Assembly: GCA_027487435.1 (NCBI GenBank)
Contig: JAIYDP010000497.1
Coordinates: forward strand, 30,137-94,136
Direction: 5' to 3'
Length of the DNA stretch: 64,000 nt
DNA from: Verrucomicrobiaceae bacterium
GTDB lineage: Bacteria > Verrucomicrobiota > Verrucomicrobiia > Verrucomicrobiales > Akkermansiaceae
Positions within the stretch are counted from its first letter, which is position 1, and the number at the start of each line of letters is the position of its first letter. The translations under genes and the position numbers were made by a program. Under the pieces are notes generated by a model. That model ran no database searches. It was not told where the DNA came from and saw only the letters and a list, made by a program, of their open reading frames with translations. Shown in pieces: positions 13,505 to 60,870 of the stretch.

Positions 13505-13587
13505 CGTCCCAAGGGGACGACTCATGCCAGCCCACGGTGAAACCGCGGGTGGATCCCACACGCAACCCACTGCGTCCCAACGGGACG
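13505..13587 (+). repeat. 83-bp palindromic module (left copy of inverted pair)
   Basis: Bounded by CGTCCCaAgGGGACG and CGTCCCAACGGGACG with internal CCCACGGTGAAACCGCGGG. Confidence 0.85.
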
Positions 13588-13706
13588 CTTGATCAGGGAG
13601 CTTGCTTCGTTTGGATACATCTTGATCGTAACGTCGCCTGTTGCGGAAAAATGACATCATCGTTGATGAGACCTATCCTGGGATTGAAGCGCGCCCCAAG
13701 ATGAAG

Positions 13707-13789
13707 CGTCCCGTTGGGACGCGATGGATTTATGCGAGATGTGTTACCCACGGTTTCACCGTGGTGGTATGAAACGTCCCGTTGGGACG
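13707..13789 (-). repeat. 83-bp palindromic module (right copy, inverted)
   Basis: Bounded by two CGTCCCGTTGGGACG copies with internal CCCACGGTTTCACCGTGG; inverted relative to 13505-13587. Confidence 0.85.
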
Positions 13790-15319: not shown

Positions 15320-15850
15320 CACAAAAATCACCTTGGTGCCAAAAAATACCGTAAATTTAGGCCGACAAGTCACTTGGTTGTCGAAATGTACGGTAAATTT
15401 AGGCCACCGAGTTAAGCGGGTGTTTGAATTTATCGTAAATTTAGGCTCACAAGTCACTCGGATGTCTAAATGTACGGTAAATTCTGGCTAACGAGTCAAG
15501 CAGGCGTTTGATTTTATCGTAAATTTAGCCTGCCAAGTGACTTGGTTGTCTAAATGTACAGTAAATTTAGCCTCACGAGCCAAGCGGATGTCCAATTTTA
15601 CAGAAAATTTAGCCAGACCAATGACCAGAATGCCCAAATTCCCCGTAAATGGAGTTCGCCAGCCACGCGGAAGCCTCCTTGTGCCGTAAAAGCAGACCGC
15701 AAGACACGCGGAAGCCTAAATCCACCGTAAAAGCAGCGTCCCAGCCACACGGCTGTCTCCTTGTAAGGTAAAAGCAGTCCGCCAGTCACTAGGTTGCCTC
15801 ACCGTACGGTAAAAACAGTCCGCCAGCGATCCAGATGCCTGCGGGTAGTA
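15320..15850. repeat. Degenerate tandem array, ~12 units of 42 then 41 bp
   Basis: GTAAA-start units at 15351, 15393, 15435, 15477, 15519, 15561, 15603, 15645 (42-bp spacing) and then 15686, 15727, 15768, 15809 (41-bp spacing). Confidence 0.93.
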
Positions 15851-17865: not shown

Positions 17866-18069
17866 CTGACACATTCGACATTCGAAATTCAGCATCCGGA
17901 ATTTCCCCGGCCCCGATCATGACTGGCCTGCGCGGCAGCGCATTTCCGATAACCGAAGGCACCCCGCAGGTCGCGAGCAATGCGAGGGACAACAACGCCA
18001 ACTTCGCCGGGGTGCACCATGTCACCCGAAAAACCAAAATCACTTCGCCGGAAAAACACCTATTCGACC

Positions 18070-21000
18070 ATGGCCAAAATTGAATTCCCGAAACCACTGA
18101 AGGCACTTATGGAGGAAAGCGACCTCCAAGGTCCCATCCGGAGTCTTGCTGACCGCGCAGGAGAAATCCTCGCGGACAATAAGCTTCCATTCTTTCCAGA
18201 CTACACGGACCACGGGACTGACCACATCAATGCCGTGTTGAAATCCCAAGTGGAACTGATTCCCAAGCACGTCTGGGAAAACAGCAAGAGGGACTCCGAC
18301 CCGCGCTTGCTGTGCGATTCCGACGCGGCGGTTATCATCGGCGCAACCCTTCTCCATGATATCGCGATGCATCTCAGGCCCGACGGGTTCCTTGAATTGA
18401 TTGGCCCGGAGTCGAGGTTTCACCCACTTTCGTGGTTCAAGGAAAGTCATGAGGGGCATTCAGCCGATGGCCCTTGGCACGAGTTGTGGGAAGACTTCCA
18501 GCGCGAAGCTAGGCGATTCAGCGACCGCCAAATGAGCAATATCATCGGCGAGGAGTCGGCACGAGTGTGGAAGTTCCAAGGCATCCCGGACGACACCGGG
18601 CAGTGGGAGAGGAACCAGAACAACTGCCTGATAGTTGGCGAGTTCATCCGCCGACATCATGCACGGCTGGCGCATGAAATTGCGATTTACGGTTTCCCGG
18701 GACTGCCAGTCGGCTCAGGCGAAAGCCACTTTCCCGCCATGGGCAAGGAGGAGGGGCATCCACTGATGCGGCTCGCCGACCTCATCGGCCTCACCGCACG
18801 GTCGCACGGAACTTCGCTTCGTGTGTGCAAGGCTTATCTGGAGGCCAGCCCTCTCTATCCAGGAACGCCCAGACCGATGGGTACAGCCGTGCTTTATCCG
18901 ATGGCGCTACTTCGTGTGGCTGATTACCTCCAGATTGACCGTCAGCGTGCCCCGGCAGTGCTGCTCCAACTGCGCAATCCACAGAGCCCGATTTCGATTC
19001 AGGAATGGAAAAAGCACCGAGCTGTCCAGCAGATTGGTCCGGCCAACGACCCTCGCGGAAAGATGGTCACGGTCACCAACGAGCTGAGCTTGTCGCTCTA
19101 CCTCCAACTGAAAGACCTGCTAGCAGGACTACAGGCGGAAATGGACCATTCCACCGCGGTGCTAGACGAAGCCTATGGCACCATGACCGAGCTCGGGCTG
19201 CACCAGCTCAACCTTTCCACCCGGCGAGTGTATTCCAACCTGCAAAGCCCCGCGTTTCGAGACAGCCTGCCTTATGTTCCGAGCCAGACTGGATTCACCG
19301 CCGACCCGAACTTGCTAACGCTCCTGGTCGAGCCGCTTTACGGCAAGCAGCCGGGTGTCGGTGTTCGTGAACTCATGCAGAATGCTGCGGACGCCGTTTG
19401 TGAATTGGAGGCGTGGTCTGAAGCCCACAAGGTGTCCATGAAGTCCCTCGACCTGCCCGAGCAGGATGGCGATGTGCTTATTGAATACATCAAGCGCGAG
19501 AACGGAACTTGGTTCGTTCGTGTGCGAGACCGGGGCATCGGCATGAGGAGTGACACCATTCAGAACTACTTTCTACGTGCGGGTGCGTCATTCCGCCGCA
19601 GTGCGGAGTGGGCGAAAGAGTTTCTCGACGAAAAGGGCCAACCGCGTGTGCTCCGCGCCGGGCGCTTTGGGATTGGCGCTTTTGCGGTCTTCCTGCTCGG
19701 TCCCTCATTCAAGTTGTGGACTCGGCACGCGGGAGCGGACAAGTCCATGGGCTATACCATCGAAGCGTCAGCTTCAAGCCAACTCATCGAAATCCGGCGG
19801 GTTGAAGGCTTGCCGGTCGGGACCACCATCGAAGTCGAGATGAGCAGTGAATCGGTAGAAACGCTGAAACTCGAAAATGGAAAGTATTCGGAATACGGGG
19901 GGACACGGAACAAGGTCGATTGGTTTTGCTGGGATTGGCCCAAAGTGACCCAGCGGGTGATTACTGGACCGAAGCCCGAACTGTTGGAACAGAAACACAC
20001 CTGTCCTATCCGGAAGAGCAACTTGCCGCCGGGTTGGTCGGTCATCCACCCCAAGGGATTCGATGCGGTGTTTTGGACGTTCAAGAAACTACCGTCCCTC
20101 TCGTGCAATGGCTTGAGGGTAGCAGACCCTAGTTACGACATTTCTAACAATGCATTCTCTTGGCCCGAACTCGCTCAACTCCGTCGCCCCTGCGTCGCGG
20201 TCCTCGACAGCGCTGCGAGCCTGCCACTGACAACCCAGCGATACAAACTTTCCCAAGAGACCGTTCCTTTCGTGGATGAGTTGGTGCGCGATGTCACGTT
20301 GTCGTTCATTGCCCACGCGCTCGTCTGCGGCCCTGAGTCACCTGAGGAAGCGCTTTCATCACGCCACAGCCATCCGCTGATGCCGGAGCCGTTCTCCCAA
20401 TACGAGGACCAGAGCGGCCATAGGTCGCCGTTTGCAAAAGGACTTTTGCGCTGGTGCGTCACTGCGGAAGCGATGGTCCCAGCAGACCCATGGCTCTACG
20501 CACTGTTAACCTCTGAATCTTGCTTTGTGTATGGAGTGTTGAGTCTGGATGAATCACGACTCGGAGAGCAGTCCGTCCAAGTAAGTTTGCTGGAACGAGT
20601 GAACACGGCAGGTTTAGCGATTTTGCCATGGCATGGTCGCCTGCAAGTGCACGGGAGCAGTCCGGTCGAGCGCGCCAATAAAGTTAGCGGCGAGCCAATG
20701 CGGATTCTCGACATGATGGCACGCGAGGGTGTGCAGTGCTTGGGTTCGGCTGCCGCATCTCATGTGCTTGTGTCCGCGCGTCCGCCATTCCGATTCGAGT
20801 CTGAAATGCGGCAACGACATCCAAGTTTCCTTCGTAAAGAGGACGACAAAAATCCTTACCACCCGGTTTGGACAAAAGTGAAACATCGCAACTCTCCTAC
20901 CGAATGGTTCAAAGCTGAAACCGGAGAGCTGAATGGAGCTGTCCCGCTGGAACCAATGCTCGAAGCTTGGGAAGATGTTATTCAAGGTAAGCGGCAGGAT

Positions 21001-21270
21001 CGGCTCAGTCGGTCACGCTTTGCTGATGATATGGAGGGGGGAGACGGTGTTCTTTTCGTCGCTGAGGTGCGAACGGTGAGTGCGAACTCGCCCGAGTCCA
21101 CGATTGCGAAGATTTGGAACGAATGCCTCGGAGCAAGAGCCATTCCGTTTAATCCCGCTGCCCGAAAGGCATTGATCGCCAAAGGAAGCAAGCACGCCGA
21201 GTTGAAACGCCACCTAGATAAGTGGAAGGAAATGAAACGCACAGGCTCGAAGGGGGTAACTGACGACTAG
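18070..21270 (+). CDS. Large protein with N-terminal HD-like domain and central HSP90/GHKL-type ATPase domain
   Basis: HD-like motifs DHGTDHINAVL and LLHDIAMHL; GHKL motifs VRELMQNAADAV, VRDRGIGM, GRFGIGAFAVFLL. Confidence 0.8.
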   Translation: MAKIEFPKPLKALMEESDLQGPIRSLADRAGEILADNKLPFFPDYTDHGTDHINAVLKSQVELIPKHVWENSKRDSDPRLLCDSDAAVIIGATLLHDIAMHLRPDGFLELIGPESRFHPLSWFKESHEGHSADGPWHELWEDFQREARRFSDRQMSNIIGEESARVWKFQGIPDDTGQWERNQNNCLIVGEFIRRHHARLAHEIAIYGFPGLPVGSGESHFPAMGKEEGHPLMRLADLIGLTARSHGTSLRVCKAYLEASPLYPGTPRPMGTAVLYPMALLRVADYLQIDRQRAPAVLLQLRNPQSPISIQEWKKHRAVQQIGPANDPRGKMVTVTNELSLSLYLQLKDLLAGLQAEMDHSTAVLDEAYGTMTELGLHQLNLSTRRVYSNLQSPAFRDSLPYVPSQTGFTADPNLLTLLVEPLYGKQPGVGVRELMQNAADAVCELEAWSEAHKVSMKSLDLPEQDGDVLIEYIKRENGTWFVRVRDRGIGMRSDTIQNYFLRAGASFRRSAEWAKEFLDEKGQPRVLRAGRFGIGAFAVFLLGPSFKLWTRHAGADKSMGYTIEASASSQLIEIRRVEGLPVGTTIEVEMSSESVETLKLENGKYSEYGGTRNKVDWFCWDWPKVTQRVITGPKPELLEQKHTCPIRKSNLPPGWSVIHPKGFDAVFWTFKKLPSLSCNGLRVADPSYDISNNAFSWPELAQLRRPCVAVLDSAASLPLTTQRYKLSQETVPFVDELVRDVTLSFIAHALVCGPESPEEALSSRHSHPLMPEPFSQYEDQSGHRSPFAKGLLRWCVTAEAMVPADPWLYALLTSESCFVYGVLSLDESRLGEQSVQVSLLERVNTAGLAILPWHGRLQVHGSSPVERANKVSGEPMRILDMMAREGVQCLGSAAASHVLVSARPPFRFESEMRQRHPSFLRKEDDKNPYHPVWTKVKHRNSPTEWFKAETGELNGAVPLEPMLEAWEDVIQGKRQDRLSRSRFADDMEGGDGVLFVAEVRTVSANSPESTIAKIWNECLGARAIPFNPAARKALIAKGSKHAELKRHLDKWKEMKRTGSKGVTDD

Positions 21271-22380
21271 GCTGCGCGGAACTCAAGAAAGCCATCCGCG
21301 CCTCCAACGAGAGCGCCGTGGAAACAATGGGTGATGACAAACTCAAGCTCATCGCTGCGGAGTTGATCACCCAAGTGAAGAAAAGCGTGACCAAGAAGCG
21401 GCTGGACAGTGTGATGGACTTCGCCTGCGGCTCCGGCTCGCTGCTGCTCAACGTCCGCAAGAAAGTGAACAAGGCGGGCGGTACCATCGGCAAAATCTAC
21501 GGCCAAGAGAAAAACATCACCACCTACAACCTCGCTCGCATGAACATGCTGCTGCACGGAGTGAAGGACACGGAGTTCGACATCTTCCACGGCGACACCC
21601 TGCTCAACGAGTGGGACATGATGCGGGAAGCTAACCCGGCCAGAAAGCCGAGCTTCGACGCCATCGTCGCCAACCCGCCCTTCAGCTACCGCTGGGAACC
21701 CACCGACGCGCTAGCCGACGACGTGCGCTTCAAAAGCCACGGCCTCGCCCCCAAGTCCGCCGCCGACTTCGCCTTCCTCCTCCACGGCTTCCACTTCCTC
21801 AAGGACGAAGGCGTGATAGCCATCATCCTGCCGCACGGAGTGCTCTTCCGTGGCGGAGCCGAAGAACGCATCCGCACCAAGCTGCTCAACGACGGCCACA
21901 TCGACACCGTCATCGGCCTGCCCGCGAACCTCTTCTACTCCACCGGCATCCCGGTCTGCATCCTCGTGCTCAAGAAATGCAAGAAGCCCAACGACGTGCT
22001 CTTCATCAACGCCGCCGAGCATTTCACCAAAGGCAAACGCCAGAACCAACTGACGGACGAGCACATCGCCAAGATCATCGGCACCTACAAGAACCGCACG
22101 GAAGCGCCCCGCTACTCCCGCCGCGTGGAGATGGAGGAGATCAAGAAGAACGAGTTGACTCCTTCGCCACCGGCTCAGTCGGGCTTCGCCCAACGCTGCG
22201 CGTTGTCTGTCTCACTCAGCCCACTTGCTGAGTTCGGCTCAACCTCAACATCTCCCGCTACATCAGCACGTCGGTGGTCGAGGAAGAGATCGACCTCGAA
22301 GCTACGAATGCCGGATTGTTCGCGCTTGAGAAAACGATCAAGACGGCGACGAACAAACACAACGAGTTTCTGAAAGAACT
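21264..22380 (+). pseudogene. Fused remnant: HsdR C-terminal segment joined in frame to HsdM from motif I onward; tail frame-disrupted
   Basis: CAELKKAIRASNESAVETMGDDKLKLIAAELITQVKKSVT is HsdR-like; KKRLDSVMDFACGSGSLLLNVRKK ... NPPFSYRW is HsdM-like; the HsdM tail LNISRYISTSVVEEEIDLEATNAGLFALEKTIKTATNKHNEFLKELGLPPLP continues in another frame to about 22402. Confidence 0.8.
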
Positions 22381-22434: not shown

Positions 22435-22506
22435 AATCTTGGATTTTCCGCTTGCGTCCTGCGGGGGCTTTTGTTCAGTGTTCTATTACATCAAAAAACA
22501 TTTGCC

Positions 22507-23268
22507 ATGATCATTTCACTACCCCAATCCATCCTCCAAGCCGAAGAGATCGAAGCCTGCTCCGAGCGCATTCTTAGTCTTATCACCAAAACGCTTCCTG
22601 CCGAGCCTGCGCTCCAGTTCATGCTGCCGCTCATGGATCGTGACCGCAAGGCGTTGAAAAAAGCACTCAGCAGCTCGCGCAGCAGCGCGTTCACTCAACA
22701 AATCGCCGAGGCCGATGAAGTCCGCGATGATGCGTTCGTAGTCTTTCGCAATACCTGTGAAACGGCAACCCGGCGCCGTAGTAAGCCCGACTTGATCGCG
22801 GCGGGGCAGTTGTTGATGAGGCTCATTGAGGCGCAAGGCTACTCTTTGCAAGCCATGGGATATTCCGCCCAGACGGGTGTGCTCAATTCGCTATTTGACT
22901 CGCTGAAAGAGGCACCCGCTGTGGCTGCCATCGCCGCGATCGGAGCGGGGGAAGTTTTGAGTGAATTGGTCGATGCGTAGACCAAGTTTGAGGAAGTCAT
23001 CAATTCGCGCACCGATGAGCAAGCAGCGAAAGACTATCCGCAGCTCGCCGATGCGAAATCAAAGTTAGGCAAACGCCTGCAAGCTCTGCTGACTCTCGTC
23101 GATAGCCTCGATGAGGCGGATATTACTGCTAGCCGGCCTGAACTGGACCTACTGATTTCCCAAATCAACGATACGCTAACCAGCATCATCGCCCCTGCCC
23201 GTGCCCGCCGCACTCGCATGTCTGGCTCCGATGCGCCAGAGCCTCCCGCGCCAAGCCCCACGGCATGA
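22507..23268 (+). pseudogene. DUF6261-like protein interrupted by one in-frame TAG at 22978-22980
   Basis: The frame continues without another stop for 95 codons after TAG (TKFEEVINSRTDEQAAKDYPQLADAKSKLGKRLQALLTLVDSLDEAD...SPTA*), with coherent alpha-helical composition. Confidence 0.7.
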
Positions 23269-60435: not shown

Positions 60436-60870
60436 GGCGTCGCGTAAAAAGACAAGCCTCACGCGATTACGCCCCTAGGGACGCAATGGGTTGCGTGTGG
60501 GTTGTTCCCAAGGTTTCACCGTGGGCTGAAATGAAGCGTCCCAACGGGACGTTTATCAAAGCCCGCGGAGTAACCGTGGGTTCTTCACCCCTCGTAATAC
60601 CATCGGCGTCCCAACGGGACGTTTCATCAAAGCCCACGCAGCAACCTTGGGTTCTTGATCCCTCGTAATACCAGCGGCGTCCCAACGGGACGTTTTATCA
60701 AAGCCCACGGAGCAACCGTGGGTTCTTGATCCCTCGTAACACCAGCGGCGTCCCAACGGGACGTTTCATCAAAGCCCACGGAGTAACCGTGGGTTCTTCA
60801 CCCCCCCGTAACACCATCGGCGTCCCAAAGGGCGTAATCGCGTGAGGCGAAGCCTCTTTACGCGACTCAC
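60436..60870. repeat. 71-bp palindromic tandem array bounded by ~40-bp inverted repeats
   Basis: Units starting CGTCCCAACGGGACG at 60537, 60607, 60678, 60749 and a degenerate one at 60821; perfect 19-bp inverted repeat 60456-60474 / 60830-60848. Confidence 0.9.

What the first reader, a model, noticed from the sequence alone, without database searches (positions are those of the whole stretch)
18070..21270. HD plus HSP90-like ATPase giant protein lodged between hsdR remnants: candidate uncharacterised defence or conflict protein
The N-terminal region has HD-like motifs (FPDYTDHGTDHINAVL, LLHDIAMHL). The centre has GHKL Bergerat-fold motifs (LMQNAADAV, VRDRGIGM, GRFGIGAFAVF), and then ~500 aa have no obvious assignment. 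It is intact (1066 aa) while the surrounding hsdR and hsdM are broken, and it follows a DUF1016 nuclease. Such HD and HSP90-like combinations are expected in nucleotide- or chaperone-based immunity. The combination with DUF1016 inside an R-M scar is the best candidate here for an undescribed system.
Basis: partly seen in the sequence, partly recalled or inferred. Interest (0 to 1): 0.7.

Follow-up and report, generated by a model that had tools for sequence, protein, structure and literature searches.

The report
One-gene HD–HSP90 immune switch candidate
This large bacterial protein joins a metal-dependent phosphate-cutting enzyme (HD domain) to an HSP90-type ATP-driven clamp with a very fast-changing tail; it is probably a one-gene virus-defence switch of a class already predicted by others, and the broken restriction genes around it are only where it landed.

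Summary
The ORF at 18070-21270 (+, 1066 aa) is real and intact. It is Pfam HD-CE (aa 42-358, E 6e-37) fused to an HSP90-type ATPase (aa 406-600). The "unassigned" part begins with an HSP90 middle domain whose catalytic arginine (R724 = E. coli HtpG R336) is conserved. Residues about 761-1005 are hypervariable, followed by a conserved C-tail. Forty-one full-length homologues from about 12 phyla share this plan, with invariant HD and Bergerat residues and R724. The patchy distribution suggests horizontal transfer. DNA similarity to the nearest relative spans exactly the gene (±6 bases), so the gene moves alone. DUF1016 is not a conserved partner: among about 47 loci only one has it within 10 kb, 7 kb away. 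The gene does recur near other defence genes (type I R-M, PDC-M28, PDC-S28). The locus is a wrecked type I operon: hsdR N-end, DUF1016, this gene, an HsdR C-end scrap, broken hsdM. Best reading: a single-protein immune switch in which a variable sensor region and HSP90 clamp control an HD phosphohydrolase. That HSP90-coupled class was, as I recall, predicted in 2023 (paper not readable here). The recombining hypervariable segment may be new. No activity is shown.

The parts
18070..21270 (+). HD-CE–HSP90 fusion gene, 1066 aa, intact, ATG start
   Evidence: homology to L042 spans exactly 18064-21276 at 80% nt
18193..19143 (+). HD-CE phosphohydrolase domain (aa 42-358); H48, H96-D97, H197, H246, D285 invariant in 41 homologues
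   Evidence: Pfam PF24391 E 5.7e-37; invariants; AlphaFold pLDDT 92, pTM 0.92. Caveat: motifs FFPxxTDH and LLHDxxMH were the search patterns, so H48/H96/D97 invariance is partly ascertained
19285..19869 (+). HSP90-type N-terminal ATPase (Bergerat) domain, aa 406-600; E434, N438, D441, D487, G489, G491, G531-G536, T585
19870..20325 (+). HSP90 middle-domain-like region, aa 601-752, with invariant N680 and R724 (LPLxxQR = HtpG LPLNVSR, R336)
   Evidence: HHalign to E. coli HtpG, 323 columns, 98.6% probability, E 8e-16; Foldseek to TRAP1/HtpG N+M structures, E 2e-11 to 1e-8
20350..21084 (+). Hypervariable alpha/beta region, aa 761-1005: proposed sensor
   Evidence: 16-41% identity against 59-84% in aa 1-600 in close relatives; silent sites also more divergent in aa 601-1000
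21085..21267 (+). Conserved C-terminal helical tail, aa 1006-1066 (WNECLG..IPF.P..R)
   Evidence: about 60% identity in close relatives; pLDDT about 90-96 except the last residues
16082..16816 (+). hsdR N-terminal fragment (244 aa), truncated; 77% aa identity to the intact 1046-aa HsdR in L104
16813..17865 (+). DUF1016/YhcG nuclease (PADLOC PDC-S02), overlapping the hsdR fragment stop; bystander, not a conserved partner
21300..21392 (+). Scrap of HsdR C-terminus (T1RH-like_C), fused in frame to hsdM
   Evidence: PF11867 E 4.2e-5, 23.5 bits against cut-off 26.8
21393..22156 (+). hsdM fragment without N-terminal part; 91% nt to a same-genus genome
22157..22234 (+). ~80-bp insert that shifts the hsdM reading frame; single copy in the genome
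22235..22402 (+). hsdM C-terminus in the other frame

Best explanation
A single-protein immune switch of the HD-CE–HSP90 class. Shown: an HD hydrolase domain joined to an HSP90 N+M ATPase module with all catalytic residues kept, then a hypervariable region and a conserved tail. Also shown: the gene moves as one ORF and recurs among defence genes in many phyla. Inferred: the protein dimerises like HSP90 and sits inactive. Binding of a phage-derived molecule or disturbed client to the variable region changes the ATP-driven clamp, which unleashes the N-terminal HD enzyme. The HD enzyme then hydrolyses phosphate bonds of nucleotides (free (d)NTPs or a signalling nucleotide), stopping phage replication and probably the infected cell. 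Confidence by step: HSP90-type ATP clamp 0.85; defence role 0.7; variable region is the sensor 0.6; nucleotide pool as HD target 0.45. The DUF1016 gene and R-M remains are neighbours, not components.
For: Domain assignment (HD-CE in 41 of 41 and HATPase_c_3 in 40 of 41 homologues). HSP90 middle domain with catalytic Arg aligned to HtpG R336; Foldseek matches to TRAP1/HtpG N+M. Invariant active-site residues, including H197, H246, D285, E434, N438, D487 and R724, which were not part of the search patterns. AlphaFold pLDDT 85.6 and 92.4. Gene-exact homology block. Patchy spread: 6 of 388 genomes of the phylum at E <= 1e-20; 48 loci over many phyla, with Chlorobiota, Verrucomicrobiota, Pseudomonadota, Bacteroidota and Planctomycetota interleaved in one supported clade. 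Defence neighbours: PDC-M28ABC in L043 and L051, type I R-M in L047 and L084, PDC-S28 in L081, an HNH type-IV-like endonuclease in L043/L044/L048, and single hits to type IIG, HEC-02, DpdJ, AbiD and others in the ±2.5 kb pool. Hypervariability of aa 761-1005 with silent-site divergence (L043/L044: fourfold identity 0.74 against 0.32, p 3e-8; L050/L080: 0.64 against 0.30, p 1e-4).
Against: No activity has been measured in any member, to my knowledge. The HD model has no significant structural neighbour (best E 0.3; mostly cyclic-nucleotide phosphodiesterases, exopolyphosphatase and a dNTPase, all non-significant), so the substrate is open. Several homologues sit between housekeeping genes with no evident defence neighbour. 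The far control (over 5.5 kb) also held defence genes, so local enrichment was not quantified. An HSP90 C-terminal dimerisation domain was not detected.
Confidence: 0.6

Rival explanations
1. Same switch, but the HD domain is a nuclease or a phosphodiesterase acting on nucleic acid or on a signalling nucleotide, not on the dNTP pool.
For: Cas3-type HD domains are nucleases and PDE-type HD domains cut cyclic nucleotides (general knowledge); the weak Foldseek list is dominated by PDEs.
Against: None of those matches is significant (E >= 0.3); no DNA- or RNA-binding domain or helicase partner is seen. The HD-CE name in Pfam reflects a predicted nucleotide-degrading effector (recollection of Nicastro et al. 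2023).
Confidence: 0.25
2. A dedicated stress chaperone or regulator: an HSP90 paralogue with an HD domain that tunes a nucleotide second messenger, unrelated to phage.
For: True HSP90 N+M architecture; some homologues lie in housekeeping neighbourhoods (L054, L056, L060, L070/L071/L087).
Against: Patchy, cross-phylum distribution, recurrent defence neighbours, and a hypervariable segment unlike a housekeeping chaperone. The genome has an ordinary HtpG elsewhere (G000:C203).
Confidence: 0.12
3. One reading: DUF1016 nuclease and the HD-HSP90 protein work together as one module.
For: They are adjacent and co-directional here, 204 bp apart.
Against: No other locus of about 47 has DUF1016 adjacent; L044 has one 7 kb away. 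The nearest relative shares only the HD-HSP90 gene.
Confidence: 0.03
4. A passenger or decaying gene without function, caught in an R-M scar.
For: Flanking hsdR and hsdM are clearly broken.
Against: Open over 1066 codons with all catalytic residues kept; purifying selection against L042 in the N half (dN about 0.04-0.06, dS 0.5-0.6).
Confidence: 0.03

Closest known systems
HD-CE–HSP90 immune systems predicted by Nicastro, Burroughs, Iyer & Aravind 2023 (NAR 51:11479, gkad879, PMC10681802); Pfam HD-CE PF24391
   Same: Same HD-CE domain (tested). Coupling of HD-CE to HSP90-type modules as analogues of STAND switches is, from memory, that paper's prediction.
   Different: The text could not be read here, so I cannot say whether this very subfamily is listed. 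The hypervariable, recombining segment and its silent-site evidence are from this work.
Bacterial HSP90 HtpG / mitochondrial TRAP1
   Same: Bergerat N-domain and middle domain with the catalytic arginine.
   Different: Extra N-terminal HD domain; no detectable HSP90 C-domain; far below the HtpG equivalog cut-off (45.7 against 371 bits).
Clover CloA (HD dNTPase of the Clover anti-phage system, PMC12265719)
   Same: HD hydrolase as immune effector acting on the nucleotide pool (read).
   Different: CloA is an octameric HD dNTPase controlled by a partner NTase, not by a fused HSP90; direct sequence comparison was not made.
GHKL-containing defence proteins (e.g. VcSduA, a Shedu protein with N-terminal GHKL ATPase, PMC12137116; paraMORCs)
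   Same: GHKL ATPase joined to an effector in one protein (read).
   Different: Effector is a PD-(D/E)xK nuclease; HSP90 N+M pair not reported in the passage read.
Bacterial STAND/NLR-like sensors (Avs, bNACHT)
   Same: Works like: ATPase switch between an effector and a variable C-terminal sensor.
   Different: Different ATPase fold (HSP90/GHKL instead of STAND); no homology claimed.

Membership tests
Pfam HD-CE (PF24391) | Score above the curated cut-off over the whole domain | tested here: met
   128 bits against 27; positions 1-261 of 263; HD-CE found in 41 of 41 homologues
Pfam HD-CE (PF24391) | HD metal-binding residues H...HD...D | tested here: met
   H48, H96, D97, D285 invariant; H48/H96/D97 partly ascertained by the search patterns
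HD-CE–HSP90 immune class (Nicastro et al. 2023) | HD-CE fused to an HSP90-type ATPase | tested here: met
   class definition is from memory, paper not held
HD-CE–HSP90 immune class (Nicastro et al. 2023) | Association with immune/defence loci | tested here: inconclusive
   Defence neighbours in several loci, but the distant control also has some
HD-CE–HSP90 immune class (Nicastro et al. 2023) | Nucleotide-degrading activity and phage protection | not testable with these tools
   needs biochemistry and plaque assays
HSP90 chaperone proper (HtpG/TRAP1) | Bergerat ATP site (E, N-box, G1, G2) | tested here: met
   E434, N438, D487, G489, G491, G531, F533, G534, G536 invariant
HSP90 chaperone proper (HtpG/TRAP1) | Middle domain with catalytic Arg | tested here: met
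   R724 aligned to HtpG R336, invariant in 41
HSP90 chaperone proper (HtpG/TRAP1) | HSP90 C-terminal dimerisation domain | tested here: not met
   HHalign ends at HtpG residue 362
HSP90 chaperone proper (HtpG/TRAP1) | NCBIfam HtpG equivalog cut-off | tested here: not met
   45.7 bits against 371
   0 of about 46 other loci adjacent; one at 7 kb
Known PADLOC anti-phage system | Match of the protein to a PADLOC model | tested here: not met
   only E 0.004 and 0.016 matches

The most novel reading that the evidence does not exclude
The HSP90 clamp itself is the pathogen receptor: the middle-plus-variable segment (aa about 601-1005) is a recombining, allele-swapped recognition cassette between conserved HD/ATPase and tail, much as HsdS target domains are swapped. 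That would make HSP90 a diversifying immune receptor in bacteria. The HSP90-like phage RIIA proteins, the dominant viral structural matches, could then be its counterparts or decoys.
Probability: 0.25. Interest if true: 0.8.

Novelty: new member of a known kind. Interest (0 to 1): 0.45.

Why it matters
If the inferred mechanism holds, bacteria use an HSP90-type clamp as a direct immune switch, whereas in plants and animals HSP90 is known as a helper of NLR receptors. The family gives a clean test: one gene, two separable active sites, and a natural set of alleles differing most strongly in the putative sensor.

Tried and rejected
DUF1016 partnership: rejected by co-occurrence. Conserved operon partner of any kind: none found. 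An HNH + UDG-superfamily pair follows the gene in three Chlorobiaceae and PDC-M28ABC precedes it in two, but neither is general. Truncation of the gene at its 3' end by the hsdM junction: suspected from L039, rejected because L042 is homologous through the same stop codon. Carriage on plasmids or sequenced phages: tblastn found only HtpG-like or HATPase-part hits on plasmids and none in phages; one IMG/VR contig has a 53% relative at its edge (L090), with no PHROG match to four of its neighbours, so viral carriage is unproven. E. coli genomes: no match. HD substrate from structure: Foldseek gave nothing significant. Weak HD-CE hits of about 520 aa in most relatives were taken to be other HD proteins and not followed. 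Enrichment of defence genes near against far could not be turned into a rate because the alignment-wide scan lists families, not members.

Full report
What is there. The window lies in a 9.39-Mb draft genome (G000:C61). Its kin genomes include contigs of the same size as named ones (Verrucomicrobium sp. BvORR034, Puniceicoccaceae bacterium 5H), so it is a member of Verrucomicrobiota, order Verrucomicrobiales by inference. The ORF runs from 17980 to 21270, but homologues start at the ATG at 18070 (1066 aa). It carries Pfam HD-CE (aa 42-358, E 5.7e-37) and an HSP90-type ATPase (HATPase_c_3, aa 432-578).

The unassigned half. A profile of 41 homologues aligned to HtpG with HHalign (98.6% probability, E 8e-16, 323 columns) covers both the N-domain and the first part of the middle domain, and places R724 (LPLTTQR) on HtpG R336 (LPLNVSR). 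AlphaFold gives pLDDT 85.6, and Foldseek finds TRAP1, HtpG and Hsc82 N+M structures at E 2e-11 to 1e-8. The HD part alone folds at pLDDT 92 and pTM 0.92 but has no significant match among solved structures; the weak list is led by exopolyphosphatase and cyclic-nucleotide phosphodiesterases. The fold is therefore clear and the substrate is not.

Conservation. In 41 full-length sequences H48, H96, D97, H197, H246 and D285 of the HD part, E434, N438, D441, D487, G489, G491 and the G2-box glycines of the ATPase, and N680 and R724 of the middle domain are invariant. The search patterns FFPxxTDH and LLHDxxMH bias H48/H96/D97, but not the others. Among close relatives, blocks in aa 1-600 are 59-84% identical to the window protein, aa 761-1000 only 16-41%, and the last 60 residues about 60%. 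Between L050 and L080 the first 600 aa are 85% identical and aa 761-1005 26%.

Recombination in the variable part. Silent fourfold sites, counted only where the local protein alignment is supported, are also more divergent in aa 601-1000 than in aa 1-590: L043/L044 0.32 against 0.74 (p 3e-8), L050/L080 0.30 against 0.64 (p 1e-4), L044/L051 0.42 against 0.69 (p 9e-4), window/L042 0.53 against 0.70 (p 0.003); L043/L051 shows no significant difference (p 0.1). Fast protein evolution alone would not do this; exchange of the segment between alleles would. Identity in the two parts is still correlated over pairs (Spearman 0.67), so exchange is not free shuffling. The p values treat sites as independent and were not corrected for several pairs.

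A lone mobile gene. DNA similarity to the closest relative (L042, Verrucomicrobiaceae pond MAG, 80% nt) covers 18064-21276, i.e. from six bases before the ATG to six after the stop; nothing else in L042's flanks matches. The family is rare in the phylum: 6 of 388 genomes match at E <= 1e-20, and only three of these (the window's own, G051 and G188) along most of the length. It is scattered over many phyla, and a tree of aa 1-600 puts Chlorobiota, Verrucomicrobiota, Pseudomonadota, Bacteroidota and Planctomycetota in one supported clade. Tree placement and MAG binning do not by themselves prove transfer.

Neighbourhoods. No gene is a constant partner. Defence genes recur: PDC-M28A/B/C immediately upstream in L043, and homologues of all three in L051; type I R-M in L047 and L084; PDC-S28 in L081; an HNH endonuclease with type-IV-restriction similarity plus a UDG-superfamily gene downstream in L043, L044 and L048. 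A PADLOC scan of 148 genes within 2.5 kb also met type IIG, HEC-02, DpdJ, PDC-S01, HEC-08 and AbiD families; a control set more than 5.5 kb away also met some (Jet/Wadjet, type II MTase, PDC-S35, PDC-S02). The association is with defence islands in general. DUF1016 is adjacent only in the window; L044 has one 7 kb away.

The R-M scar. Intact relatives of the flanking genes run hsdR-hsdS-(AAA gene)-hsdM (L104-L106). In the window hsdR is cut after about 235 residues (77% identical to L104), followed by DUF1016, the HD-HSP90 gene, a 31-residue HsdR C-terminal match of another type (PF11867, E 4e-5, below its curated cut-off), and hsdM from its middle, in frame with that scrap, 91% identical to a same-genus copy. 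An 80-bp single-copy insert shifts the hsdM frame. The R-M system cannot work as such; the lodged gene is intact and under purifying selection in its N half (dN 0.04-0.06, dS 0.5-0.6 against L042).

Mechanism. Shown: enzyme-type HD domain, complete HSP90 N+M ATPase residues, hypervariable segment, single-gene mobility. Inferred: an HSP90-like ATP clamp acts as the switch, the variable segment senses, and the HD domain executes, most likely on nucleotides. The nucleotide target rests on the HD-CE family's predicted role (recollection of Nicastro et al. 2023, whose title and DOI were confirmed from reference lists, but whose text is not held) and on the precedent of HD dNTPases in immunity such as Clover. 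No member has been tested, to my knowledge.

Verdict. The proposed DUF1016 system does not. The protein is a member of an already named HD-CE family and, by recollection, of an already predicted HSP90-coupled immune class. The new element here is the hypervariable, apparently exchanged segment, which would make the class easy to test.

Noticed in passing
window 22471-23268: DUF6261 gene interrupted by one in-frame TAG (22978-22980); reading through it gives a full-length Pfam match (E 2.5e-23 against 5.5e-12 for the first part alone), so it is a pseudogene or a sequencing error.
   Followed up: partly
window 15347-15618 and 15763-15840: Degenerate 42/84-bp and 41-bp tandem arrays (CGTAAATTTAGGC...) just upstream of the hsdR remnant; a second copy of the array lies on contig C165 of the same genome (78% identity).
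   Followed up: partly
window 60536-60832 and 13564-13789: 71-bp unit in 4.2 tandem copies holding a GTCCCAACGGGAC-type palindrome; related inverted-repeat copies at 13564-13789 look like REP-type elements.
   Followed up: no
window 22157-22235: 80-bp single-copy insert in hsdM, not found elsewhere in the genome; origin unknown.
   Followed up: partly
L043 13196-14845, L044 11127-12770, L048 8903-10552: In three Chlorobiaceae the gene is followed 70 bp downstream by an HNH endonuclease similar to type IV restriction enzymes and then a UDG-superfamily protein; possibly a separate small restriction system.
   Followed up: partly
L072 8469-9011, L076 9464-9964, L078 9276-9764: A related small protein of 162-180 aa with hydrophobic stretches lies upstream of three distant homologues; possible membrane partner.
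   Followed up: no
AlphaFold model of 18070-21270: Its best viral structural matches are mostly phage RIIA lysis-inhibition proteins (E about 1e-8): HSP90-like modules occur on both sides of the phage-host conflict.
   Followed up: no
genome G000: The assembly is 9.39 Mb in 506 contigs at 82% completeness, while congeners are 2.9-4.4 Mb; the bin may hold foreign contigs.
   Followed up: no
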